NCBI RefSeq assembly: GCF_004352825.1
Contig: NZ_SJRW01000002.1
Location: 1,116,001 to 1,180,000, forward strand
Direction of reading: 5' to 3'
Length of the DNA stretch: 64,000 nucleotides
DNA from: Luteimonas arsenica
GTDB taxonomy: Bacteria > Pseudomonadota > Gammaproteobacteria > Xanthomonadales > Xanthomonadaceae
Position 1 is the stretch's first letter. Every line of letters begins with the position of its first letter. Below, piece after piece: positions 7,491 to 60,300 of the stretch. A model generated the notes under the pieces. The model was given only the letters and a program-made list of their open reading frames with translations, did no database searches and was not told the DNA's origin. A program made the position numbers and the translations under genes.

Positions 7491-9065
7491 ATGCCGACGC
7501 AGGCCTGGTCCAGGCGCAAGGTGCTGGCTTCGATGATCGCGGGCGCCGCCTGTGCGGCGATGCCGCCGACGTTCGCTGCCGGGCGCGTGGCGGCTGCCGA
7601 TGGCACCGGCCTGCTGCTGCGCGACGTGCGCCTGGTCGACGGCAGCGGCGCGCCGGCGCGTGGCGCGGACGTCCTGGTGCGCGGCGACACCATCGAACGG
7701 ATCGGCCGCCTGTCCCGCGGCGAGGCGCGCGGTCTGCGCGTGGTCGACGGCGGTGGCCGCGTGCTGGCACCGGGCTTCATCGACCTGCACACGCATGGCG
7801 ATCCGCTGGAGTCCGCGTTCACTCCCTTCCTCGCGATGGGCGTGACCACGGTGCTGTTGGGACAGGATGGCGGCAGTCCCTCGCTGGAGGGTGCTGCGCG
7901 CGACGCCAGCAGCCTGGCCGCGTGGATGGACGCGGTCGATGCGGCCACGCCCGACATCAACATCGCCACGCTGTCCGGCCACGGCGCATTGCGCCGCCGC
8001 GCCGGCATCGACGATGGCACGCGCAGACCCTCGGACGGACAGCTCGCCAGGCTGCAGTCGGTGCTGGAAGCCGACCTGCGCGCCGGCGCCTTCGGCCTGT
8101 CCAGCGGCCTGGAGTACGTGCCGGGGCGCTATGCGGAGCTGCGGGAACTGCGCAGCCTCGGCCCGGTGGTCGCGCGTTTCGACGGCGTGGCGATGAGCCA
8201 CATGCGCTCGGAGGACGCCGACGATGTGCGCGCGTCCATCCAGGAACTGGTCGAGGCCAGCGGGCCGGCGCGCGCCCACGTCTCGCACCTGAAGATGGTC
8301 TACGGCAAGGGCGAGGCCGCCGCCGACGGGCTGCTCGACTTCCTGCGCGGGCTGCGCGGTGACGGCAACTCGCCGACCGCCGACGCCTATCCCTACGAGG
8401 CCAGCTACACCGGCGTCGGCATCCTGTTCCCGGAGTGGGCGCTGCCGCCGAACGACTACGCTGCGGTGGCCGCCGCCCGCGGCGATGAACTGCGCGCGCA
8501 CCTGCAGGCGCGGATGGAGCAGCGCAACGGCCCCGAAGCGCTGCTGTTCGGCACCGGCCGCCACGCCGGCCGGACGCTGGCGCAGGTGGCGGCGGCGGAA
8601 GGAAAGCCCTTCGCCGAAGTCCTGGTGGATCTCGGCCCCGGCGGCGGCCAGGCCGCGCACTTCGTGATGGACCGCGCGCTGCAGGACCGCCTGATGCTGG
8701 CACCGTTCGTGGCCCTGGGCAGCGACGGCTCGCCCGGCGGCAGCCACCCGCGCGGCGCCGGCACCTTCGCCAGGTGGATCGAGGACTTCGTGGTGCGCCA
8801 GCCGCGGGTGTCGCTGGAAGATGCCGTTCGCAAGGCGACCTCGCTCCCGGCTTCGATCCTGGGGCTGCGCGACCGTGGAACGGTCCGCGAGGGGGCGAAG
8901 GCCGACCTGGTGCTGTTCGATCCCGGTCGCGTACGCGCCCGCGCCGACTACGTGAACCCGACGGCGATCGCCGAAGGCTTCGACCTGGTACTGGTCAACG
9001 GGCGGCCTGCGTACGAGGCCGGTGAGCCGGCCGGGCGGGACGGGCGCCTGCTGCGGCGGCGTTGA
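7491..9065 (+). CDS. N-acyl-D-amino-acid deacylase-type amidohydrolase, Tat leader
   Basis: 524 residues from ATG 7491, which has a purine-rich GGGAGAGCGGG ahead of it. The WSRRKVLASMIAG leader (residues 6-18) is a twin-arginine signal. The metal-dependent amidohydrolase barrel carries HTH at residues 100-102, later SHMRSED and HVSHLK histidines, and a GSDGSP aspartate, as in D-aminoacylases. The usual cysteine metal bridge (GNCG-type) is replaced by GQDGG, so metal binding may differ. The likely reaction is hydrolysis of N-acyl-D-amino acids or D-peptides in the periplasm; exact substrate is inference. Confidence 0.85.
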   Translation: MPTQAWSRRKVLASMIAGAACAAMPPTFAAGRVAAADGTGLLLRDVRLVDGSGAPARGADVLVRGDTIERIGRLSRGEARGLRVVDGGGRVLAPGFIDLHTHGDPLESAFTPFLAMGVTTVLLGQDGGSPSLEGAARDASSLAAWMDAVDAATPDINIATLSGHGALRRRAGIDDGTRRPSDGQLARLQSVLEADLRAGAFGLSSGLEYVPGRYAELRELRSLGPVVARFDGVAMSHMRSEDADDVRASIQELVEASGPARAHVSHLKMVYGKGEAAADGLLDFLRGLRGDGNSPTADAYPYEASYTGVGILFPEWALPPNDYAAVAAARGDELRAHLQARMEQRNGPEALLFGTGRHAGRTLAQVAAAEGKPFAEVLVDLGPGGGQAAHFVMDRALQDRLMLAPFVALGSDGSPGGSHPRGAGTFARWIEDFVVRQPRVSLEDAVRKATSLPASILGLRDRGTVREGAKADLVLFDPGRVRARADYVNPTAIAEGFDLVLVNGRPAYEAGEPAGRDGRLLRRR

Positions 9066-9180
9066 CCGGCCACCGCGGGTCGGCCGCGTCGGGGGCACTC
9101 AGGGTTTTCCCCTGGATGCGTTCCCGGGCATGACCGCTAGAGTCCCGATGCAAGTCCCCAGTCCACGAGGTTCCGCCGAA

Positions 9181-9720
9181 ATGAAGAAGTCCGCCGCGCT
9201 GCTGTTCCTGCTGTCGTGCATCGTCCTGTCCGGCTGCGCGGCCACGGTCAAGCGTCCGACCGCCGGCGCCGCGCCACTGGCGATCCCCGCGGTGGCGACC
9301 ACGCGCATCCAGCTGCACGTCAAGGGAACACCCGAGATGACCGCGTCGGACGACTGGACGTTCTTCCGCACGCAGTGGCGCACGGCGATGGCCGAAGCCG
9401 CTGCGGCCGAGGGCCGCGAGTTCGTCTGGCTCGACAGCCTGCCGTCGAGCTTCGACGGGCCCGGCACGCTGGTGGTCGTGACCGTCACGGATTACCGCTA
9501 CGTGTCCACCGGCGCACGCTACGGCCTGGGCGTGATGACGGGCAACGCGCGGGCAGAGGCGGAGGCCACGTTCCACGTCCTGCCGGAGCAGCGACTGGCC
9601 GGCACGCGCGAATACTCGACCTCGTCCACGGCCTGGCAGGGCATCTTCTCGGCGATGACGCCGAAGCAGCTGGCCGCGATTGCCGCACAGATGATCCGCG
9701 ACATCGACGCGCGGGACTGA
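9181..9720 (+). CDS. Putative lipoprotein, DUF4410-like
   Basis: 179 residues from ATG 9181. The leader KKSAALLFLLSCIVLSGC ends in a lipobox (LSGC, Cys at about residue 20), so the mature protein should be lipid-anchored. The mature part has alternating beta-strands with an LVVVTVTDYRYVS segment and a C-terminal helix (MTPKQLAAIAAQMIRDI). This resembles DUF4410-type outer-membrane lipoproteins of unknown role. A longer reading frame starting upstream exists but would hide the lipobox. Confidence 0.75.
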   Translation: MKKSAALLFLLSCIVLSGCAATVKRPTAGAAPLAIPAVATTRIQLHVKGTPEMTASDDWTFFRTQWRTAMAEAAAAEGREFVWLDSLPSSFDGPGTLVVVTVTDYRYVSTGARYGLGVMTGNARAEAEATFHVLPEQRLAGTREYSTSSTAWQGIFSAMTPKQLAAIAAQMIRDIDARD

Positions 9721-9778
9721 CCGCCGCCGGCCGCATGCGCTAAGGTCCGGTTTCCGCATTCCCCTGGTCGACACGCCC

Positions 9779-10204
9779 ATGCGCATCCTCGCCTTCGCCG
9801 CCCTCACCGCTGTTGCCGCGTTCGCCCACGCCGGCGGCCCCGCGTCCTATGGCGCCCCGTTCAGCGAAGGCCCGGTGATGCCGGTGTCCGAAGCGATCGC
9901 CAGCTTCGACGAGGTCGCGGGACAGCCCCGGCGCTTCAGCGGCCGCATCGCCGAGGTCTGCCAGGCCAAAGGCTGCTGGCTGATGCTGGAGGACGACGGC
10001 CAGGTGGCGCGGGTGATGTTCGGCAAGCACGATTTCTTCATCCCGAAGGACAGCACCGGCCGCGCCGTGGTGCACGGCGTGCTGGAGCGCAAGGCGCTGA
10101 CGCCGGAGCAGGTCGAGCACCTGAGTGGCGACAGCGGCAAGGGCATCGCGGCGGAGCCGGTGGAGTACCGGATCGTCGCCGACGGAGTGCTCGTCGCGGG
10201 CTGA
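9779..10204 (+). CDS. DUF4920 family exported protein
   Basis: 141 residues with a Sec signal peptide (MRILAFAALTAVAAFAHA). The mature domain has the DUF4920 pattern: FSGRIAEVCQAKGCWLMLEDD with two cysteines (C-x4-C), then VMFGKHDFFIPKD. Family members are small OB-fold-like periplasmic proteins that often sit near metal or thiol-stress genes; no reaction is established. The gene ends 158 bases before the borosin precursor, and an extended -10 promoter in that gap suggests the two are transcribed separately. Confidence 0.8.
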   Translation: MRILAFAALTAVAAFAHAGGPASYGAPFSEGPVMPVSEAIASFDEVAGQPRRFSGRIAEVCQAKGCWLMLEDDGQVARVMFGKHDFFIPKDSTGRAVVHGVLERKALTPEQVEHLSGDSGKGIAAEPVEYRIVADGVLVAG

Positions 10205-10263
10205 GATCCGGCGGCCCCGGGGGCGCTCCGATGGCCGGGCACGGCGGTGTTTGGCCTGGCTCC

Positions 10264-10272
10264 TGTGATAAT
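10264..10272 (+). promoter_or_regulatory. Extended -10 promoter upstream of borosin precursor
   Basis: The sequence TG-T-GATAAT is a good extended -10 element in an otherwise GC-rich gap. No strong -35 hexamer lies 17 bases upstream, as expected for extended -10 promoters. The start of transcription would fall near 10280, leaving an 80-base leader that contains the hairpin at 10293-10316. Confidence 0.45.
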
Positions 10273-10292
10273 GTCGTTCATTACTTGACGGA

Positions 10293-10316
10293 CCGGAAGC
10301 AAGGGGGTGCTTCCGG
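10293..10316 (+). promoter_or_regulatory. Perfect hairpin in leader of borosin precursor
   Basis: CCGGAAGCA (10293-10301) and TGCTTCCGG (10308-10316) form a perfect 9-bp inverted repeat with a 6-base AGGGGG loop. It is not followed by a T run, so it is unlikely to be a terminator. It could be a protein operator, an RNA-binding hairpin or an mRNA-stabilising element. It ends 45 bases before the precursor ATG. Confidence 0.5.
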
Positions 10317-10361
10317 CTACATGACAATGGAAGTTCCGGATTGTTCAAGGGGAGGCGCAAG

Positions 10362-10577
10362 ATGGTCACACTGCTTGACCTGATGAGGAAGCTGGCTAGC
10401 GACGCGTCGCTCGCTGCCGAGTACGAAAAGGATCCTGCCACGGTGCTGCGGCGCGCCGGCCTGTCCGACCAAGAGCAGAAGGCGATGCTCGACAAGGACT
10501 ACGCTTCGATCAAGAAATTCACCGGGCTCGCCGACGGCCAGTTCGCGACGAACCATATCGTCAAGGCATTCGAGTAG
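10362..10577 (+). CDS. Split-borosin precursor peptide (LigA-like fold leader)
   Basis: 71 residues from ATG 10362, decided by GGAGG at 10351-10355 with a 6-base spacer. In split borosins a small helical leader (the borosin-binding domain, which resembles the LigA dioxygenase subunit) presents a C-terminal core to a partner methyltransferase that methylates backbone amides. This protein has the matching size (Shewanella SonA is about the same length) and pattern: LLDLMRKLASDASL, then Y-x3-P-x2-VL-x3-GLS and a D-x5-K helix, up to about residue 56. The candidate core is residues 59-71 (DGQFATNHIVKAF then E). The partner enzyme is 29 bases downstream. The core and methylated positions are inferred. 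Confidence 0.85.
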   Translation: MVTLLDLMRKLASDASLAAEYEKDPATVLRRAGLSDQEQKAMLDKDYASIKKFTGLADGQFATNHIVKAFE

Positions 10578-10606
10578 CCCCGTTCCCGGCTGGCGAACTT
10601 CAGACC

Positions 10607-13132
10607 GTGTTCCGGCTGGTCCGCATCGCGTTGCTGCTGGTGCTTGCATGCGTGGGCGGACCGGTGTCCGCCGACGACGCGCTGGAGGCGAGTGTCGTCG
10701 AGATCGAACGACTGGCCACGACGGCGCACTGGCGCGAAGCAGATCGCAGGATCGACGACCTTTCGTCGCGTCACGACGAATTGTCCCCGGAGCAGCGCCA
10801 CCGGATCGAGTTCGTGCGCCTGCGCAACCTGGGACTGGCGGGCAGAGAGTCCGCCGCGCTGCCGGCTTTCTCGCGGCTGCTGCAGCAGGACATGTCGCCG
10901 GCATTGCGGCTGCGCGTTTACACCACTGCGATCAGCGTCGCCGCCAATGTCGAGGACTGGCCGCTGGCTTTCAGCTGGCTGAGCGAGGCCCTGGGGCACC
11001 TTCCCGATGAACCCGAGGCGGCGCCGGGGCTGCTGGGCGCGGCCAGTTACCTGCATACCCTGGTGGGGGAAACCGGCAAGGCGCGGGATCTGGCGCAGCA
11101 GGCGCTCGAAGCGGTCGAGTCCAGTGGCGACCCGCGGGCGCGTTGCCTGGCCCTGGCCGACCTGGCGATGGCCGAGGACCATGCGGGGAACTTCAAGGAA
11201 GCCGAGACCTGGCGGCGGCACCAGATCGAGGCCTGCGAGGCTGCAGGCGACCTCGTCTTCGTGGCCAACGGCAAGTATGGCGTGGGCAAGATGGTCGCTG
11301 CCCAGGGGCGGCACGCCGAGGCGCTGGACTGGTCGCGCCAGGCGTTGTCGGAATTCGAGGCCGCGGGCTTCAGCGCCGGCGCGTGGAGCGCCACGCTGGA
11401 AATCGCGGGCAACCTGATCGCGCTCGATCGTGATCTTGACCGCGCGGAAAGCCTGCTCGACGACACGCTGCAGTATTACCGGGCGCAGAATTCCGAACTC
11501 GCGGTGGCCGAGACGGAGCGCCTGTATGCCAGGCTTGCCGAGCAGCGTGGTGATCTGGAGGGCGCCCTGTCGCATCTTCAACAGGCGATGGCTGCCCAGG
11601 AGGAAGCCGAGCGGGATGCCCGCGAGCGCCGCCTGGCCTACCTGCAGGTCGAGTTCGACACCCGTCTCAAGGAGCAGCAGATCGCGCTGCTCGAGGCCGA
11701 GAAGGAACTTGCCGCGCTGCAGGTCACCGCGACCCAGCGCCGGCAGTGGCTGTTGGGCCTGGGCATCGTCGCCCTGCTGGTCACCGCGGTCCTGCTCTCG
11801 GGGCTGCTGCGCCATTCGTTCCGCGAGCGCCGCCGCTACCGCTGGCAATCCGAGCGCGACGGGCTGACCGGGCTGTACAACTACCAGCAGATCCGCCTGC
11901 TGGGCGAGGACGCCTTCCGGCGCGCGCGCCTGCACGGGAGCCCTTTCACGGTGGTCGTCGCCGACATCGACCTGTTCAAGCAGGTCAACGACCGCTACGG
12001 CCACGCCGCGGGCGACGAGGCGCTGCGCTCGCTCGGCGGCTGGATCAGCGAAGTGATGGGGAGCCAGGGCCTGGCCGGGCGCAGCGGCGGCGACGAGTTC
12101 ACCATCCTGCTTGACGCCGACAATGCGGCGGCCGATGCGCTGCTGCAGCGCCTGCGCAAGCGGGTCGAGCCGATCACCGTGTTCGGGCAGACCTTCGGCT
12201 TCAACCTCAGCGCCGGCGTCTGCCAGGACGATGGCCGCATCGACACCCTCGAGCAGTTGATCCACAAGGCCGACCAGGCGCTGTACCGGGCCAAGCACGG
12301 CGGCCGCGACCGCGTGGTCTGTGCGAAGGGCGAGGCCGCCGTGGACGCCGCCGCGAACGGTTCGCTGGTGGTGGTCGGCAGCGGCATCCAGTTCGGCCGC
12401 CACGTCAGCGAACGCACCCTGTCGGAAATCCGCGAGGCCGAGCAGGTGTTCTGCCTGGTCGATCCCTTCGCCCTGGGCATGATCCACGCGATCCGGCCCG
12501 ACGCGGTCAACCTCGGCGTGCATTACGCGCCCGGCAAGGACCGGCGCGAGACGTACCGGGAGATCGGCGACGCGATCATGGCCGGGGTCGAGGCCGGCAA
12601 CCGGGTATGCGCGGTGTTCTACGGCCACCCGGGCGTGTTCGCCGACGTGCCGCACGATGTCATGCGCAGGACGCTGGCGAAGGGTCTGCCGGCGCGCATG
12701 GAGCCCGGCATCTCCGCCGAAGCCTGCCTGTACGCCGACCTCGGGCTGGATCCGGGGCAGCGCGGGGTGCAGTCGCTGGAAGCGACGCACTTCCTCATCC
12801 ACGACCGCCCGCTGGACACGGCCGCGCTGGTGCTGCTGTGGCAGGTGACGCTGGCCGGGGACCTGTCGTGCACGCGCCTGCACGCCGATCCCGACGGGCT
12901 TGAGGCGCTGGTGGACAAGCTGCTGCGCTGGTACCCCGCCGACCACGAAGTGATCCTGTACGAAGCCGCGCAGCTGCCGATCGATGCGCCGCGGATCGAG
13001 CGCCTGGCCCTGCGCGACCTGCCCACGGCGCACTACGAGGAATACACCACCCTGGCGATCCCGCCGCTGGACACGCCGCGCGCCGAACCCGGCGCGCGCG
13101 AGCGGGTGAGGGGCGTTGCCGGCGCGGCCTGA
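10607..13132 (+). CDS. TPR sensor-GGDEF-borosin alpha-N-methyltransferase fusion
   Basis: 841 residues from GTG 10607, with a signal peptide (residues 1 to about 24, cleaved near VSA). Residues 30-345 are TPR-like helices (periplasmic), 345-378 a charged coiled coil, 380-402 a membrane segment, 415-575 a GGDEF domain with intact GGDEF at 494-498 but no upstream RxxD inhibitory site, and 585-835 a SAM-dependent methylase of the tetrapyrrole-methylase fold. That last domain is specifically borosin-like: GSGIQFG, YGHPGVF (672-678) and EPGISAEAC (699-707). Tyr640, Arg646, Tyr650 and Tyr672 keep the 6/4/22 spacing of the OphMA active site (SonM has 9/4/22). It should methylate the adjacent precursor in the cytosol while making c-di-GMP. 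The coupling is inference. Confidence 0.9.
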   Translation: MFRLVRIALLLVLACVGGPVSADDALEASVVEIERLATTAHWREADRRIDDLSSRHDELSPEQRHRIEFVRLRNLGLAGRESAALPAFSRLLQQDMSPALRLRVYTTAISVAANVEDWPLAFSWLSEALGHLPDEPEAAPGLLGAASYLHTLVGETGKARDLAQQALEAVESSGDPRARCLALADLAMAEDHAGNFKEAETWRRHQIEACEAAGDLVFVANGKYGVGKMVAAQGRHAEALDWSRQALSEFEAAGFSAGAWSATLEIAGNLIALDRDLDRAESLLDDTLQYYRAQNSELAVAETERLYARLAEQRGDLEGALSHLQQAMAAQEEAERDARERRLAYLQVEFDTRLKEQQIALLEAEKELAALQVTATQRRQWLLGLGIVALLVTAVLLSGLLRHSFRERRRYRWQSERDGLTGLYNYQQIRLLGEDAFRRARLHGSPFTVVVADIDLFKQVNDRYGHAAGDEALRSLGGWISEVMGSQGLAGRSGGDEFTILLDADNAAADALLQRLRKRVEPITVFGQTFGFNLSAGVCQDDGRIDTLEQLIHKADQALYRAKHGGRDRVVCAKGEAAVDAAANGSLVVVGSGIQFGRHVSERTLSEIREAEQVFCLVDPFALGMIHAIRPDAVNLGVHYAPGKDRRETYREIGDAIMAGVEAGNRVCAVFYGHPGVFADVPHDVMRRTLAKGLPARMEPGISAEACLYADLGLDPGQRGVQSLEATHFLIHDRPLDTAALVLLWQVTLAGDLSCTRLHADPDGLEALVDKLLRWYPADHEVILYEAAQLPIDAPRIERLALRDLPTAHYEEYTTLAIPPLDTPRAEPGARERVRGVAGAA

Positions 13133-13159: not shown

Positions 13160-14752
13160 TTACCTGGGCTCGATCACCCGCTTGCGCGGCATGCGCTCCT
13201 CCCGCATCGCGGCGTGGTAGGCGAACGAGGCGACGATGGCCGCGGCCTGCTTCAGGTCCTCGGGTTCGACGTGGTCCCAGGTGTCCAGGTGGGTGTGGTG
13301 GACGTTGGTGAAATAGTCCAGCCGGTCCTGGATGAACTGGAAGCCGGGCAGGCCGACGCGGTCGAAGGCGATGTGGTCGGTGCTGCCGGTGTTGCGGGTG
13401 GCCACGGTGGTGGCGCCGACGTCGTGGAAGGGCTCCAGCCAGGCCTTGAAGATCGGGATCGCGGCCAGGTTCTCCTGCGCGTAGATGCCGCGGAAGCGGC
13501 CCGAGCCGTTGTCCATGTTGAAGTAGACCGAGAAGCGGTCGTAGTCGCGCTTCTTCTGCAGGGCGCCGGTGGGTTCGCGCAGCGAACCCGGCAGCGCCTT
13601 CTGCGCCGGGTCGGTGGGCTCCGGATAAGCCGCGAAGTGGCGGGCGACGTAATCCTGCGAGCCGATCAGGCCCTGTTCCTCGCCGCTCCAGAGCGCCACA
13701 CGGATGGTGCGCTCCGGGCGCGCGCCCACGGCCTTGAGGATGCGCATGGCCTCCATCATCACCGCCACGCCCGCGGCGTTGTCGGCGGCGCCGGTGCCGG
13801 TGTGCCAGGAGTCCATGTGCGCGCCGAGCATGACGATCTCGGCCGCCTTGCGGCCGCGGCCGGGGATCTCGGCCAGGGTGTTGTAGCCGGGCTCGTCGGT
13901 GTCGCCGGTGAAGCGGGCGTCCACGTTCACGCGCAGGCGCACGGTCTGCTTCCGCTCCAGCGCGCGCACCAGCGGATTGAAGTGCTCGGCGATCATCGCC
14001 AGCTCCGGGATGCCCACCGGTTCGCCGGCCTTGCGCGAACCGCCGCCGGCCACGCGGATGATGCCGTTGTCCCAGCTGCTGATGCTGATGGATGCCAGCG
14101 CGCCCTCGGCGATGAAGAATTCGTTGGTGGCCTTGGCCAGTTCGACGCGTTCGCTGTACTCCTTGACCCGCTTGGCGCGGTCGCTGGCGCTGTCCTTCGG
14201 GACGGTGAACTCCTGCAGGCCTTCCAGCGAGGTGGCGTCGTGGCGGTGCGAGTCCGGCTCGGTGCCGCGCTTGTACTCGCGCGCCTCGCCCAGCAGCAGG
14301 ATCTTGCCGCCCAGCTTGCCGCGGTACTTGTCGAGATCGGCCAGCTTCTTGATCTCCACGTGCACCAGTTCGCCCTCCACCGGACCGTCGGTGCCCGGCG
14401 TCCAGGCCTTGGGCAGGGCGTGCAGCGGCTGCACGCGCTCGCCGAGCATCTCCACGCTGGCCGAGCTGAACTCCCAGCCGCGGCCGAAGCCGTCGAAGGC
14501 TTCGTCGTGGACGTTGGACAGGCCCCATTCGTTGAACTTCGAGCGGGTCCAGGCATTGGCCTCGGCCATCTGCGGGGAGTTGGTCAGGCGCGCGCCGATG
14601 TTCTCGGTCAGGTGGCTGAAGGTCGCCATCACCTGCGAGTTGTGGAAGGCCTCCTGGCGGATGCGGCTGACCATGTCCAGGTCGACCGGCTCGCTGGCCA
14701 GGCTCAGGCTGCTGGCGCCCAGGCAGAGCAGCATCAGGCAGGGCTTCAACAT
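13160..14752 (-). CDS. M28 family zinc aminopeptidase with PA-type insert, secreted
   Basis: 530 residues with a signal peptide (residues 1 to about 19). A protease-associated-like region lies before the catalytic domain. The two-zinc M28 centre is complete: His312 in GAHMDSW, bridging Asp324 in GAADNAAG, Glu358-Glu359 in SGEEQG, a later MDNG aspartate (about 428) and the HTHLDT histidine near the end. Family members are aminopeptidases or carboxypeptidases acting on peptides outside the cytoplasm. The gene is convergent with the borosin gene (27 bases between stops), so the two are not cotranscribed. Confidence 0.9.
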   Translation of the reverse strand: MLKPCLMLLCLGASSLSLASEPVDLDMVSRIRQEAFHNSQVMATFSHLTENIGARLTNSPQMAEANAWTRSKFNEWGLSNVHDEAFDGFGRGWEFSSASVEMLGERVQPLHALPKAWTPGTDGPVEGELVHVEIKKLADLDKYRGKLGGKILLLGEAREYKRGTEPDSHRHDATSLEGLQEFTVPKDSASDRAKRVKEYSERVELAKATNEFFIAEGALASISISSWDNGIIRVAGGGSRKAGEPVGIPELAMIAEHFNPLVRALERKQTVRLRVNVDARFTGDTDEPGYNTLAEIPGRGRKAAEIVMLGAHMDSWHTGTGAADNAAGVAVMMEAMRILKAVGARPERTIRVALWSGEEQGLIGSQDYVARHFAAYPEPTDPAQKALPGSLREPTGALQKKRDYDRFSVYFNMDNGSGRFRGIYAQENLAAIPIFKAWLEPFHDVGATTVATRNTGSTDHIAFDRVGLPGFQFIQDRLDYFTNVHHTHLDTWDHVEPEDLKQAAAIVASFAYHAAMREERMPRKRVIEPR

Positions 14753-16776: not shown

Positions 16777-17850
16777 TCAGACGACTTCGACGCGCGCCTC
16801 GCCGGCGCGGGTCTCGCCGATCACGGCCGCATCGGCGAAGCCGCCGGCGTGGAAGGCCTCCAGCACTTCGCCCAGCGCCTGCGGCGCGCAGGACACCAGC
16901 AGGCCGCCGGAGGTCTGGGGATCGGTGAGCAGGTCGCGGGCGGGTTTGTCGATACCGGCGCCGAGCTCGACGCCGTCGCCGTAGGCGGCCCAGTTGCGCC
17001 CCGAGGCGCCGGTGACCACGCCCTCGGCGGCCAGCGCCTGCACGCCCGGCAGCCAGGGCAGGTCGTCGTGGCGCAGGCGCACCGTGAGCTTCGCGCCGCG
17101 TGCCAGCTCCAGTGCGTGGCCGAGCAGGCCGAAGCCGGTGACGTCGGTCATCGCGTGCACGTCGGGCAGCGCCGCCAGCGCGGGCCCGGGCCGGTTGAGG
17201 CGGGTGGTGGCGTCGATCATCGCGCGGTAGCCGGCGTCGTCGAGCACGCCGCGCTTGAGCGCTGCCGACAGCACGCCCACGCCCAGCGGCTTGCCCAGCA
17301 CCAGCAGGTCGCCGGCGCGCGCGTCGGCGTTGCGGCGGATGCGGTCGGGGTGGGCGATGCCCATCGCGGCCAGGCCGTAGATCGGCTCGACCGAGTCGAT
17401 GCTGTGGCCGCCGGCGACGGGAATGCCGGCTTCGGCGCAGGCGTCCTCGCCGCCGCGCAGGATTTCGGCAATCACCTCGTGCGGCAGCACCTTGATCGGC
17501 ATGCCGACCAGGGCCAGGGCCATGATCGGCGTGCCGCCCATGGCGTAGACGTCGGACAGGGCATTGGTGGCGGCGATGCGGCCGAAGTCGTAGGGATCGT
17601 CCACGATCGGCATGAAGAAGTCGGTGGTGGCGATCAGCGCCTGCTCGTCGTTGAGCCGGTACACCGCGGCGTCGTCGGCGGTGTCGTTGCCGACCATCAG
17701 CTGCGGCCAGACCGGCGCCGGCGCGGCGCGCTTGAGCAGGTCGGCCAGCACGCCCGGTGCGATCTTGCAGCCGCAGCCGCCGCCGTGCGACAGCGACGTC
17801 AGGCGGGGCGTCTGGGGCTGTGCTACGGGCGTGCCGGCGTTTGCGGTCAT
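16777..17850 (-). CDS. selD: Selenide, water dikinase SelD
   Basis: 357 residues. SelD converts selenide and ATP to selenophosphate, the selenium donor for SelA. The N-terminal glycine loop HGGGCGCKIAP carries Cys26 (the position occupied by Cys17 in E. coli and by selenocysteine in some species) and Lys29. The AIR-synthase-like fold follows, with FFMPIVDDPYDFGRIAATNALSDVYAMGG and TDVTGFGLLGH. The active site here is cysteine, so this is not itself a selenoprotein. It is the last gene of the selA-selB-selC-selD run, 43 bases after the tRNA. Confidence 0.95.
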   Translation of the reverse strand: MTANAGTPVAQPQTPRLTSLSHGGGCGCKIAPGVLADLLKRAAPAPVWPQLMVGNDTADDAAVYRLNDEQALIATTDFFMPIVDDPYDFGRIAATNALSDVYAMGGTPIMALALVGMPIKVLPHEVIAEILRGGEDACAEAGIPVAGGHSIDSVEPIYGLAAMGIAHPDRIRRNADARAGDLLVLGKPLGVGVLSAALKRGVLDDAGYRAMIDATTRLNRPGPALAALPDVHAMTDVTGFGLLGHALELARGAKLTVRLRHDDLPWLPGVQALAAEGVVTGASGRNWAAYGDGVELGAGIDKPARDLLTDPQTSGGLLVSCAPQALGEVLEAFHAGGFADAAVIGETRAGEARVEVV

Positions 17851-17893
17851 GCTTCACTCGCTGGTTCGGTGCGTCCGCGCGGCGGCGCGGGAA

Positions 17894-17989
17894 TGGCGGA
17901 AGGCAACAGGAGTCGAACCTGCCTGGGAGCGGCTGACGCCCCCAACCGGGTTTGAAGCCCGGCCGCGCCACCGGGCGCGCTTGCCTTCC
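17894..17989 (-). tRNA. selC: tRNA-Sec (anticodon TCA)
   Basis: A 96-base tRNA on the minus strand with the long acceptor/T arms typical of selenocysteine tRNA: 5' GGAAGGCA pairs with the 3' end before an encoded CCA (17894-17896). The anticodon TCA is at 17953-17955 inside the loop CTTCAAA, flanked by a CCGGG/CCCGG stem. A long variable arm (about 17925-17943) and the GGTTCGACTCC T-loop are present. It decodes UGA with SelB. It sits between selB (92 bases upstream) and selD, so it is probably cut from a shared transcript. Confidence 0.95.
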
Positions 17990-18081
17990 ATGGGTGGCCG
18001 CGCCGGCGGGGTGCGCCGCGTGCCGCAGCCAAGCTATCACAAGGATCGCGTGGCGACGGATGCTGTCTGGACCGCAGCGTT

Positions 18082-20034
18082 TCAGTCGTCGGGCGCGTCT
18101 GCCGCCGACGCCGCGCGCAGCGCCTGCAGCCAGGTGCTGTCCTCGCGCAGCAGGTGGCTGTCGCGGACGCGGCGGGTGAGGCCGGTTCGGTCGAAGTGCT
18201 CAAGGATCTGGATCGCGCGCTTGCGGCCCAGGCCCGTGGCATCGCGGAAGTTCGCGGCTTCGATCGAGCCCTCGCGCGCGGCGATCGCGCAGGCGAGCGC
18301 GGCCGCCTCCTGCATGCGATCGCGATGGTAGAAGAGGTCGCGCACCACCTGGTGGGCGTCGCCCTGCAGGGCGAGCATGCGCAGCAGCCGGCGCACGCGT
18401 TCCTCCGGCTGGGCCTCGATCCGGGCGAGGTCGCGCACCCAGGGCGGATCGAAGCCGCCATCATGCAGGCGCACGAGCAGGCGCGAGGCCAGCGCGGCAT
18501 CGTCGGCATCCATCGTGACGCGGTGCCCGGGCAGGTGCAGCCAGGGGCCCTTGCGCTGCAGCCGGCCTTCCTGCGCGAGTTCGTCCAGCAGCGCCTGCCA
18601 CAGGGCGGCGGGGGCCGTCGGCAGCGCGATGCGGCGCAGGCGCGTGGCCTCGGGCCCGGGTTCGTCGGGCGAGTCGTGGTGGAAGTCGGCGAGTGCCTGT
18701 TCGATGCGCGCGCACAGCGCTTCGCGGTGCAGGTCGGTAATCGCGATGCGCGGCGCGCCGCGCGGGAGCAGCCAGCGTGCGTCGCCAGGCAGTTGCAGCT
18801 GCTCTGGCGCCAGGCTGGCCAGGCGCACCAGGGCGGTCTCGTCGACGCCATGGCCGGCATGGCGCAGCAACGCCTGCAGGCCTTCGCCGTCGAGCATGGC
18901 GGCGATGCCGTCCAGCCAGGCCAGGCGTTCGGGCGAGCGGCGCTTGCGCGCGGGCGCGTTGGGATCGAGCACGCGCCCGCCGCCGATGGTGCGGCTGGCC
19001 TGGGCATCGCGCACGATGAAGCGGTCGCCGGGCGCGGCGCACAGCGGTTCGTCGAAGACCAGCTGCACGCGGCCGCTGCCGCCTGGCGCGATGCCGCCGT
19101 CGGCCAGCGGCACGGCGTGCGCCAGGCGGCGCGCGGTGCCGAGGTGCAGGTGCAGCGGCGCCCAGTTGCCGATGGCGGCATCGGCGTCGGGCAGCAGCCG
19201 CAGTTCGACGTCGACGTTGCGCGTGGGCAGGAAGGCGCGGACATCGGCGATCCAGTCGCCGCGTCCGATCGCGTCCCTGGCGGTGCCGGCCAGGTTGAGC
19301 GCGCAGCGTTCGCCGGCGCGGGCGTCCGGGCTGGGCCGGTTCTGCGCGTGGATCGAACGCACGCGCACCGGCTTGCCGGCGGGCGCCAGCTCCAGCCGCG
19401 CATTCTCGTCGCCGGCCGAGGTGCGGCCGGCGAAGACGGTGCCGGTGACCATGGTGCCGCGGCCGGCAAGGGTGAACACGCGGTCGACCGCGAGGCGGAA
19501 CAGGCCGTCGGCATTGCGCGCGGGCGCGGCCAGGGCCTGCTCCTGCAGGTGCTGGCGCAGCGCCTCCACGCCGGGATCGCCGTCGGCGCTGGCGTTGACG
19601 GCGAAGGCCGGCGCGCCGGCCAGCGGGCCATCGGCCAGCAGGGCTGCGACTTCGGCGCGCACCGCGTCGATCCGCGCGGGCTCGACGCGGTCGGCCTTGG
19701 TGATCGCCACCGCGCCGCGTCCGACGCCGAGCAGGCCGAGGATCGCCAGGTGCTCGCGCGTCTGCGGCATCACGCCGTCGTCGGCGGCCACCACCAGCAG
19801 TCCGAAGTCGATGCCGCAGGCACCCGCGGCCATGGTGTGCACCAGCTTCTCGTGGCCGGGCACGTCGACGTAGCCCAGCACGCCGCCATCGGGCAGCGGT
19901 GCATAGGCATAGCCGAGTTCGATCGAGATGCCGCGCGCCTTTTCTTCCTTCAGGCGGTCGGTCTCGACCCCGGTGAGCGCGCGCACCAGGGTGGTCTTGC
20001 CGTGGTCGATGTGGCCGGCGGTGCCGACGATCAC
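18082..20034 (-). CDS. selB: Selenocysteine-specific elongation factor SelB
   Basis: 650 residues from a GTG at 20034 that overlaps the selA stop in GTGA. The EF-Tu-like GTPase core has [12 protein letters not shown] at 4-15, DVPGHE and TKAD. Beta-barrel domains and a C-terminal half of winged-helix repeats follow (the part that binds the SECIS hairpin in mRNA). The length is slightly above E. coli SelB (614). The open frame continues far upstream into the antisense of selA, but the GTPase motif begins right after the GTG. The 4-base overlap indicates translational coupling with selA. Confidence 0.95.
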
Positions 20035-57388: not shown

Positions 57389-60300
57389 TCAGCCGGCCCG
57401 GCGTGCGGACGCCGGGTCGGACTGCAGCAGCCGCACGGTGCGCGCGTCGATCCCGTCCGGATCCGCGCCGGCCAGCAGCGACTGGATGGCGTCGGGGAGG
57501 GGCGCATCGCCCGGAACCATGCCTGCCCATCCATTCTTGCTTCCGCGCTTGATCCGGTACAGGCAGCGATCGGCCAGGTCCAGGCAGGCGCTCCAGTCGC
57601 CGAGCGCGGGCCAGTCCAGCGAGAACGGCCACGGTGCGAAGCCGATCGAGCAGGTCAGGTCCAGGGCCACCCCGCGGCCGATGCGGATCGGCTGGGTGGC
57701 GATCGCGGAGCGGATGCGCTCGGCGAGCAGGGCGGCATCCTCCGCGCGCGCGAAGCGCGACACGAGCAGGAACTCCTCGCCGCCCCAGCGCACGAGCAGG
57801 TCGTCGTCGCGACTGAGCAGGCGCAGGCGGTCGGCGAAGTGCACCAGGACTTCGTCTCCCGCCTGGTGACCATGGGCGTCGTTGATGCGCTTGAAGTCGT
57901 CGATGTCGACCATCAGGAACACCAGGCGTTCCTGTTCGCCGTCGGCGGTCTCCATGCGGTTGCGCAGCGCGGCCGCTTCGCGGCCCAGCCACTCCTGCAG
58001 GTCGCGACGGTTCGAGATGCGTGTCAGGGGATCGCGGCGGGTGGCGATGCTGAGCTGGGCATTGGTCCGGCTGAGGCTCTGGTTGGCGAGCTGCAGCTGG
58101 GCAGTGCGTTCGGCGACCGTGCGCTCGAGCAGTTCGACCTGGCTGCGCTCCCGGCGCATCGCCGCGGCCGTGCGCCCGACGATCAGGACCAGCAGCAGCA
58201 CCATCGCCACCACGTAGGCGGCGTATGCAGCGGGATGCCGCCACCACGGCGGTGCCATGTGCAGTTCCAGCCGTCGGGCCTGGCCGAAGCGGCCGTCGCG
58301 GCCGGCGGCCTCGACCTCCAGTGCGTAACGGCCCGGGGGCAGCGCGGTGATGGAGAACTCCGCCGTGGGCGCCCGCGGATACACCCAGTCCTGGTGCAGG
58401 CCGAGGACCCGGTAGCGGAGCCGGGCGGCATCGGGAGCGCTGAAGTCGATCGCGGTCATGCGGATGCTGACGAGCCGGTCGCGATGCTCCAGCTGCGCGT
58501 CCCGCGCATAGACGATGTCGACTTCGCGTGGACCGTTGTCATCCGCATTCAGCGGAAGCGCCTGCAGGGTGGTCAATACGGGCCGTGCCGGAGGGCTGTG
58601 CCGGGGCAGGCCGGACGGATCCACCACGTCCACCCCGCGCGTGCCGCCGAAGTGGAGCAGTCCGTCGTCGCTCCGGAACGCCGATCCGCTGTTGTACTCG
58701 CGGTTGGCCAGGCCGTCGCGCGGGCCGAGCACCTGGATCGTGCGGTTTTCGAGGTCGATGACCGAGAGGCCGTTGTTGCTGCTGGCCCACAGCCTGCCCT
58801 GGCCGTCGGCGAGCAGGGAATAGACGACGTTGTTCCCGAGGCCGTCGTGCTGGGTGGTGCGGGTGACTTCCCCGCTGGCGCGGTCGATGCGGTAGATGCC
58901 GTGGGAGTAGCTTCCCGCCCACAGCGCCTGGTCATCGGCGTGCAGCGACCAGATGGAATGATGCAGGACATCCGGGAAGACCCGTTCGGGATCGCTGCCG
59001 GGATCGAGTCGCCAGAGACCATCGGCGTTGGTCGCGATCCAAAGATGGCTGCCGCTGCGCAGGAGGGCGGTCACGTGGCTGCGCCGCAGCGGGGCGATCT
59101 CCGGGGTGTCGACGATGCGGCCATGCCGCAGCAGGGCAAGCCCTCCGCGGGTGCCGATCCAGCCGGCCTCGCCCTCGAACAGCATGGCGTCGATGCGGGC
59201 GTCGGGCAGGCCCGTGATCGCGCGCGGCGGCCCTTGCCCCGGCCAGTGGAAGAGGCCGTCGTGGCTGCCGATCCACCAGCCGCCGTCGGTGGCCCGAGCG
59301 ATCGCTCGCACGGACTGGCCCTCGAAGCCGGGCACCTGCCGCCATTGCCCGTCGTCGCGCAGGCGTTCCAGCAGACCCTCGTCGGTGCCGAGCAGGACGT
59401 GCCCGCCGCGCCGCCAGATCGCGCGCATGCTTCCTCGCGGCCAGTCGCGCCCGGCCTCGACGCCGCCGACGCGGACCGCCGCGGACAGCGGGCGCGCATA
59501 GTGCAGCCCCGAGGTATAGGTGCCGATCCACAGCGCGCCGGCGGGATCCTCGTGCAGGACGTCAACGGCGTTGTCCAGCGGCTGGTCGAAGCGCAGCGCT
59601 TCCGGCACGCTTGCCGCGCCGGGCAGGCGGAGCACTCGGCCGTCGCGCAGGCCGATGAGCAGGCTGCCGTCGTTGCGCCGCAGCAGGGCGGTGACCCGCG
59701 GGGTGCCGGGGGCCAGGTCGGCGGCCGTCAGCGTCCGCAACAGCCGGCCATCGGCGGGATCGAGCAGGAACACTCCGCCCTGTTCGCTCGCGGCCCAGGC
59801 CCCTTCGGGACCTGCCTGCAGGGCGGTGCAGCTTCCGGCGGGTGCCGGCAGGGTGGCCAGCAGGTCCAGGCGGACGCGGGTCGCGCGCCAGACCCGACAG
59901 TCGCGCCCGAGCGCCAGGGCCACGCCGGTCCCGGGCAGGGCGGCTACGCCGATGGTTTCCGAATCGCCGCCAAGGTGTACGACCCCCGGGGTGCCGGCCG
60001 CGGCGACGTGGTCCAGTCCTCCGACCGTGCCGACCCAGGCACCGTCAGTCCCGTCCAGCGCGAGGGCGGTGACCTGGTTGTGGGCCAGGCCATCGTCGCG
60101 GTCCATGCGCAGCCGTGACCAGGTCGGCAGGTGCAGGATCTCCAGGCCGGCATCGTTGGTGCCCAGCCACAGGTGCCGGCTCGCGGCATCGAAGACCATC
60201 GAATCGATGCTGCCGCTCGACAGCACACGCGCGCCGTCGCCGTCGCGCCATACCTCGAAGCGGTGCCCGTCGAAACGGGCCAGGCCGTCCTGGGTGCCGA

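What the first reader, a model, noticed from the sequence alone, without database searches (positions are those of the whole stretch)
10362..13132. Split borosin RiPP locus with the alpha-N-methyltransferase fused to a membrane TPR-GGDEF protein
A 71-residue precursor-like protein with a good ribosome site is followed 29 bases later by a protein whose C-terminal 250 residues are a borosin-type methylase. The active-site tyrosines and arginine (Tyr640, Arg646, Tyr650, Tyr672) keep the 6/4/22 spacing of OphMA. Borosin enzymes were first described as fungal fusions and later as separate bacterial pairs such as SonM/SonA. Here the methylase is joined to a periplasmic sensor, a transmembrane helix and a GGDEF cyclase, which would tie backbone methylation of a peptide to c-di-GMP signalling. 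I do not know of a characterised example of this layout and cannot confirm that none is described.
Basis: partly seen in the sequence, partly recalled or inferred. Interest (0 to 1): 0.95.

Follow-up and report, generated by a model that had tools for sequence, protein, structure and literature searches.

The report
Peptide methylase built into membrane sensor
Two neighbouring genes encode a small peptide of the borosin kind and a predicted membrane sensor fused to a predicted peptide-methylating enzyme; dozens of related bacteria carry the same three parts as neighbouring genes, so this peptide chemistry likely serves cell signalling rather than antibiotic making.

Summary
A 71-aa SonA-like precursor (10362-10577) is followed 29 nt later by an 841-aa protein: signal peptide, TPR, transmembrane helix, GGDEF, borosin methylase. 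The methylase matches SonM at E=4e-67 (best tetrapyrrole methylase 0.6) and keeps SonM's catalytic residues.

The layout is not wholly unknown: the legend of a 2024 borosin architecture figure already lists a GGDEF domain.

New here is context. In this family 75 of 82 unfused borosin methylases with enough downstream sequence have a same-strand GGDEF gene within 1.2 kb (73 with a TPR match), usually with a precursor between; in a named, mostly Shewanella set, 73 of 80. About two of 82 would be expected. Five other loci carry a TPR protein that is a hybrid histidine kinase (four scanned) instead. The 21 fused methylases form one group; their closest unfused relatives include precursor > TPR sensor > methylase with ATGA overlaps. 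Fused cyclases keep the active site but lack the RxxD site that most unfused ones have.

Best reading: a signalling module in which the methylated peptide likely acts on the TPR sensor. Methylation, release, ligand and c-di-GMP output are untested.

The parts
10349..10355 (+). GGGGAGG, likely ribosome site of the precursor, six bases before ATG 10362
   Evidence: read in the sequence
10362..10577 (+). 71-aa borosin-type precursor
   Evidence: SonA is its best PDB match by sequence, 3.5e-5; five-helix model best matched by SonA chains; homologue upstream of 19 of 20 fused loci
10371..10523 (+). leader (borosin-binding domain), residues 4-54
   Evidence: five helices at pLDDT 82-88 over residues 11-50
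10542..10574 (+). presumed core, residues 61-71 (FATNHIVKAFE); methylated positions not known
   Evidence: disordered in the model; aligned with the SonA tail; conservation in 20 loci
10607..13132 (+). 841-aa TPR-transmembrane-GGDEF-borosin methylase protein
10607..10672 (+). predicted signal peptide, residues 1-22
   Evidence: hydropathy segment 4-22
10676..11545 (+). TPR domain, residues 24-313, predicted periplasmic
   Evidence: Pfam; helical solenoid, ten-residue block means of pLDDT mostly above 90
11555..11854 (+). long helix, residues 317-416, through the membrane (382-400) into GGDEF
   Evidence: model, hydropathy
11840..12325 (+). GGDEF cyclase domain, residues 412-573; motif at 494-498; no RxxD I-site
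12359..13078 (+). borosin methylase domain, residues 585-824; Y640, R646, Y650, Y672
   Evidence: SonM 4e-67; residue map

Best explanation
This two-gene locus encodes a borosin-type precursor peptide and a TPR-transmembrane-GGDEF protein with a SonM-like methylase domain at its C-terminus, and it likely works as a peptide-signalling module in which the backbone-methylated peptide would act on the TPR sensor to set c-di-GMP output. Shown by sequence: the precursor, the domain order, intact methylase and cyclase motifs, and a conserved neighbourhood. Inferred: the methylase domain binds the five-helix leader and methylates the C-terminal core (residues 61-71) at the inner face of the membrane. 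Inferred and least certain: the core is released, reaches the periplasm (N-methylation would help it cross the membrane) and is bound in the TPR groove, whose signal passes down the long transmembrane helix to the GGDEF dimer. In some relatives a TPR sensor beside precursor and methylase ends in a hybrid histidine kinase, so the output is exchangeable.
For: Methylase and precursor are SonM/SonA-like with the catalytic residues kept and 7 of 9 residues of SonM's leader-binding loop identical. Unfused family relatives: 75 of 86 loci (75 of 82 with 2.5 kb or more downstream) have a same-strand GGDEF gene within 1.2 kb, 73 with a TPR match; 42 GGDEF genes elsewhere in 1,394 kb of the same regions give about 0.02 expected per locus (arithmetic mine). 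Named set: 73 of 80, including Shewanella sp. HN-41. TPR-hybrid kinases in its place in L113, L115, L135 and L136, L137 by size and position. Fused loci need one change on the tree and group with precursor > sensor > methylase loci with ATGA overlaps. Over 126 unfused loci the partial distance correlations are leader-methylase 0.43, core-TPR 0.30, core-GGDEF 0.04. The TPR helices assigned to the groove side are more conserved in 8 of 8 pairs. Peptide-bound TPR proteins (Rap-pheromone, APPBP2-degron) are among the solved neighbours.
Against: Nothing here shows methylation, release or export of the core, or binding to the TPR. In the 61 unfused loci of the window's own family core-GGDEF (0.24) exceeds core-TPR (0.14); in the named subset leader-TPR is 0.39. 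Five family loci (L103, L109, L174, L183, L184) and eight distant ones (L116-L121, L138, L139) show no TPR-sensor partner by these tests. L103 has a C39-peptidase ABC transporter instead, the mark of an exported product. TPR solenoids resemble each other, so structural neighbours are weak evidence. The core is not more conserved than the leader.
Confidence: 0.45

Rival explanations
1. Intramolecular control: the methylase domain, by binding precursor and S-adenosylmethionine as a dimer, would set the spacing of the two GGDEF domains, so precursor occupancy rather than a released peptide controls cyclase activity; the TPR senses something else.
For: Methylase and GGDEF are one chain with an 11-residue linker; all 20 fused cyclases lack the RxxD I-site that 129 of 158 unfused ones have, as if control had moved elsewhere. 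SonM works as a dimer that opens and closes on binding (PMC8429565, passages). Core-GGDEF distance correlation in the family subset is 0.24.
Against: Most relatives have the methylase as a separate protein, so tethering is not needed. The partner output can be a histidine kinase. The linker is among the least conserved stretches (mean entropy 2.59 bits).
Confidence: 0.22
2. The sensor governs the peptide, not the reverse: an outside signal read by the TPR domain would raise c-di-GMP (or phosphorelay output), and that output controls when an ordinary methylated natural product is made.
For: Sensor and pathway genes are neighbours in most loci examined. L103, within the same methylase group, has an exporter and a repeated core like a product pathway.
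Against: In the fused form the sensor is the enzyme, not a regulator of its transcription. Of ten window flanking genes, 19 of 20 fused loci share none, so no exporter or protease from the window's flanks travels with the pair.
Confidence: 0.23
3. The methylase domain is a tetrapyrrole (cobalamin or siroheme) methylase and the small ORF is unrelated.
For: Pfam's general TP_methylase model is the curated hit.
Against: SonM 4e-67 against precorrin-2 methylase 0.6; catalytic residues in 120 of 120 listed homologues; precursor beside 19 of 20 fused loci.
Confidence: 0.02

Closest known systems
Split borosin SonM/SonA of Shewanella (type IV)
   Same: Methylase 49% identical over 237 positions with the catalytic residues kept; precursor of equal length with a SonA-like leader fold; Shewanella relatives also have a TPR-GGDEF gene beside the pair
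   Different: Here the methylase is the C-terminus of the TPR-GGDEF protein, the gene order is precursor first, and the tail sequence differs
GGDEF-bearing borosin type named in Xu et al. 2024, Figure 1 legend (PMC11395268)
   Same: A borosin architecture with a GGDEF domain (legend seen)
   Different: Only the legend could be read, so which protein carries GGDEF, and whether TPR and membrane parts are drawn, is unknown
TPR-GGDEF diguanylate cyclases beside unfused borosin genes
   Same: Signal peptide or N-terminal hydrophobic segment, TPR, transmembrane helix, GGDEF
   Different: The unfused ones end after GGDEF and 129 of 158 have an RxxD I-site; 0 of 20 fused ones do
Peptide-pheromone TPR receptors (Rap family)
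   Same: TPR solenoid beside a small peptide gene; Rap-pheromone complexes among the structural matches of residues about 20-345
   Different: Rap proteins are cytoplasmic and bind unmethylated peptides (recalled); here the TPR is predicted periplasmic and no ligand is shown

Membership tests
borosin alpha-N-methyltransferase | sequence closer to SonM/OphMA than to tetrapyrrole methylases | tested here: met
   4e-67 and about 1e-38 against 0.6
borosin alpha-N-methyltransferase | catalytic Tyr/Arg/Tyr/Tyr set | tested here: met
   Y640, R646, Y650, Y672 map to SonM Y58, R67, Y71, Y93; 120 of 120 listed homologues
borosin alpha-N-methyltransferase | methylates peptide backbone amides | not testable with these tools
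   needs co-expression and mass spectrometry
split borosin precursor | five-helix borosin-binding leader | tested here: met
   model has five helices; Foldseek ranks 1-29 are SonA chains, TM up to 0.90 by target, but E-values 0.08 and up for so small a protein
split borosin precursor | C-terminal core reaching the methylase active site | not testable with these tools
   no complex prediction available; tail disordered in the single-chain model
type IV split borosin | methylase and precursor on separate, stand-alone proteins | tested here: not met
   precursor is separate, but the methylase is a domain of an 841-aa protein
diguanylate cyclase | intact GG(D/E)EF active site | tested here: met
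   GGDEF at 494-498; 120 of 120 listed homologues and 20 of 20 fused loci
diguanylate cyclase | makes c-di-GMP | not testable with these tools
   needs an enzyme assay
peptide-receptor TPR (Rap-like) | TPR solenoid with a peptide-binding groove | tested here: inconclusive
   fold matches Rap and APPBP2 complexes; assigned groove helices more conserved in 8 of 8 pairs; no binding shown
RiPP natural-product cluster | exporter or leader peptidase travelling with the precursor | tested here: inconclusive
   none of ten window flanking genes is found in 19 of 20 fused loci; the flanks of those loci were not annotated

The most novel reading that the evidence does not exclude
Bacterial split borosins are a dedicated signalling class: backbone-methylated ribosomal peptides are the ligands of periplasmic TPR receptors with exchangeable outputs (diguanylate cyclase or hybrid histidine kinase), and in this lineage the enzyme that makes the signal and the receptor that reads it are one polypeptide.
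Probability: 0.33. Interest if true: 0.93.

Novelty: new variant of a known kind. Interest (0 to 1): 0.74.

Why it matters
In the passages I could read, bacterial split borosins are treated as natural-product pathways and I saw no cellular role given for SonM/SonA. The TPR-sensor neighbour, present also beside the methylase of Shewanella sp. HN-41, turns 'what are they for' into a gene-deletion experiment with c-di-GMP as readout. From recall I know no other case of peptide backbone methylation tied to second-messenger or two-component signalling. No held paper has borosin together with diguanylate, c-di-GMP or tetratricopeptide; the single borosin-and-GGDEF paper is Xu 2024. Subscription papers are mostly not held, so this is not proof of absence from print.

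Tried and rejected
Core invariance: a first count gave FATNH in 108 of 108 homologues, but that search seeds on exact 5-residue words. In loci found without such seeding the motif is in 8 of 20, window included. I withdrew the invariance claim; the tail is about as conserved as the leader, slightly less.

Tetrapyrrole methylase reading: rejected.

Full-length model: the TPR and GGDEF parts are confident, the methylase part is not (ten-residue block means of pLDDT 37 to 92; Foldseek TM about 0.47 to SonM), so nothing is concluded from it about domain contacts.

Promoter and terminator scan: no promoter-like site; one terminator-like site on the other strand, the number expected by chance.

Published type of the GGDEF borosin (V-X): not settled; Imani 2022 and Lee 2024 are not held and Cho 2022 was not looked up.

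S. oneidensis MR-1 itself did not appear in the 80 named loci (94 matched, best 80 kept), so its neighbour gene was not seen.

Precursor profile: of 114 unfused loci, 30 gave no precursor by the first profile; a wider profile, run on 16 chosen loci and on all L052-L186 ORFs but printed for 17 loci, found one in several of these.

Counting notes: the 214 loci are not all independent. At least four genomes appear twice (L163/L231, L157/L242, L156/L263, L111/L262, by equal contig lengths) and L086/L186 come from one genome. One second-copy match (G018:C38, same score as L074) and three weak matches (E 3e-4 to 9e-4) were not fetched. L110 holds no methylase and was dropped. In one search the unfused loci were thinned; it was a quick tree without bootstrap, and L133 and L114 are among its flagged long branches. 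In one search loci with more than one precursor, or with short leader or core, were dropped (126 kept of 163); partial Mantel tests do not remove relatedness.

Full report
What is there. The window lies in a 2.97-Mb genome (G000, 7 contigs); the named relatives of its fusion protein are mostly Luteimonas. The 71-aa ORF at 10362 and the 841-aa ORF at 10607 exist as described. The larger protein has a signal-peptide-like start, TPR repeats, one transmembrane segment at 382-400, GGDEF at 412-573 and a methylase at 585-824. One borosin-type methylase was found in this genome.

Is the methylase a borosin enzyme? Against the PDB sequences the domain matches SonM at 4e-67 and OphMA at about 1e-38, while the best tetrapyrrole methylase is at 0.6. 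SonM Y58, R67, Y71, Y93, F99 and W166 are kept (Y640, R646, Y650, Y672, F678, W745), and seven of nine residues of the SonM loop 208-216, which the precursor leader wraps around, are identical (roles from passages of PMC8429565). The 120 homologues listed, of 320 found, all carry PF00590 and PF00990 and keep the four catalytic residues and GGDEF; that search admits only proteins near the query's length, so it could not show unfused methylases. Named carriers include Luteimonas, Pseudoxanthomonas and Rubrivivax.

Is the small ORF a precursor? SonA is its best PDB match by sequence (3.5e-5). Its model has five helices (4-13, 15-23, 25-31, 36-43, 47-54) and a disordered tail, as described for the SonA leader. 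Foldseek ranks 1-29 are SonA chains, TM up to 0.90 by target length, followed by OphMA and LigAB; E-values are 0.08 and up because the protein is tiny. In 19 of 20 fused loci from related genomes a homologous precursor lies directly upstream: 9-39 nt in 16, with an overlapping ORF start in L056 and L062 and an apparent frameshift in L064.

Autonomy. Of ten flanking window genes, 19 of the 20 fused loci share none; the closest species (L052) shares five. The pair looks like a free-standing unit.

Neighbourhood test. If the fusion reflects function, unfused methylases should sit beside the same partner. Of 296 genomes of the family, 105 have a methylase match and 21 the fused-type precursor. I fetched 86 standalone loci: 75 have a same-strand GGDEF gene within 1.2 kb downstream, 73 of these with a TPR match; 7 have none by that rule and 4 end within 2.5 kb. 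Of the 7, L087 has one 1.6 kb downstream and L168 has TPR-GGDEF genes on both sides; L103, L109, L174, L183 and L184 have none. GGDEF genes elsewhere in the regions of 114 unfused loci number 42 in 1,394 kb, about 0.02 expected per locus (arithmetic mine). Outside the family 28 loci gave 13 downstream, 1 upstream (L133) and 14 without. Of the 14, five have the TPR-kinase partner below, L125 has precursor and GGDEF genes divergent from the methylase, and eight more distant ones (L116-L121, L138, L139) have neither. In a named set of 80 loci, mostly Shewanella, 73 have the GGDEF gene; L199 and L257 have it 1.2-1.4 kb away, L228 and L229 upstream of the methylase, L192 has TPR and GGDEF on two ORFs, L214 a weak GGDEF match, and L250 ends too soon. 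Shewanella sp. HN-41 (L194) reads methylase, 71-aa precursor, 596-aa TPR-GGDEF protein. A profile of unfused precursors found 90 such ORFs beside the methylases of 84 of 114 unfused loci, nearly all downstream of the methylase. Over all 214 loci sorted, 163 read methylase > cyclase, 20 are fused, 5 read cyclase > methylase and 26 have no GGDEF partner by the rule.

Another output. Five loci without a GGDEF partner (L113, L115, L135, L136, L137) have a TPR protein of 951-1082 aa beside precursor and methylase. Pfam finds TPR plus HisKA, HATPase_c and receiver domains in L113, L115, L135 and L136, with an Hpt match in L115 and L136; L137 was not scanned and is assigned by its size and position like L136. 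L114 has a TPR-kinase and a TPR-GGDEF gene. So the TPR sensor is the more constant partner and the output is exchangeable.

Origin of the fusion. On a quick tree of 100 methylase domains the 21 fused ones need one change (SH-aLRT 87) and lie in a 99%-supported group with L133, L113 and L114 (L133 and L114 are flagged long branches). L133 reads precursor > TPR-GGDEF > methylase and L113 precursor > TPR-kinase > methylase; in both the sensor stop overlaps the methylase start as ATGA. Loss of such a stop would give the fusion. Fused cyclases have GG[DE]EF and lack RxxD in 20 of 20 loci, and lack RxxD in 120 of 120 listed homologues; 129 of 158 unfused cyclases with the motif have RxxD. That RxxD marks product inhibition is recalled knowledge.

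Which part meets the peptide? Over 126 unfused loci the partial rank correlations of sequence distance are leader-methylase 0.43 (the pair known to bind, a positive control), core-TPR 0.30 and core-GGDEF 0.04. In the 56-locus named subset core-TPR is 0.30, core-GGDEF 0.00, core-methylase 0.27 and leader-TPR 0.39. In the 61-locus family subset core-TPR is 0.14 and core-GGDEF 0.24, which goes against the idea. The helices I assign to the groove side of the TPR are more conserved than their partners in 8 of 8 pairs (assignment mine). Solved neighbours of the TPR part include Rap-pheromone and APPBP2-degron complexes, but TPR solenoids resemble each other. The TPR-ligand model is the best single bet, not a result.

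Conservation of the core. In 20 fused loci found without word seeding, residues 61-71 have mean entropy 1.12 bits against 0.86 for leader residues 4-54; position 61 is F or Y, 62 A or S, 67 V or I, 70 Y or F in all 20. The earlier 108 of 108 count for FATNH was biased by the search and is withdrawn.

Literature. Xu et al. 2024 (PMC11395268; passages, reference list and legends read) explain 'GGDEF' in the legend of their figure of borosin architectures, so a GGDEF-bearing borosin is in print. Imani 2022 (PMC9019853) and Lee 2024 (PMC11221551) are not held. PMC8429565 and PMC11285071 were read as passages only. Borosin with diguanylate, c-di-GMP or tetratricopeptide gave no paper; borosin with histidine kinase gave one marine RiPP review, seen in the listing only.

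Verdict. A real borosin pair whose methylase is built into a TPR-GGDEF protein. The layout is probably already typed; the conserved sensor partnership and its exchangeable output, found here, give a testable function.

Noticed in passing
window 16777-19974 (-): Selenocysteine genes: selD (16777-17850), a tRNA-Sec (17894-17989) and a selB match (18085-19974) lie side by side.
   Followed up: partly
window 57533-58036 (-): A second GGDEF domain in the window, one of 14 in this genome.
   Followed up: no
L103 about 8000-11684: A borosin methylase with a precursor that repeats a YFC-TPE-like core and a C39-peptidase ABC transporter downstream, a more classical product cluster.
   Followed up: partly
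L078, L092, L093, L149, L189, L198: Two or three precursor genes in a row between methylase and TPR-GGDEF gene.
   Followed up: no
L109, L183, L184: A distinct group of borosin-type methylases of 450-513 aa with a C-terminal extension that looks LigA-like by eye (not tested) and no GGDEF neighbour.
   Followed up: no
window 13160-14752 (-): A peptidase-like gene (weak match to aminopeptidase LapA, 50 bits against a cut-off of 600) converges on the fusion gene; among 20 fused loci only the closest species has it.
   Followed up: partly
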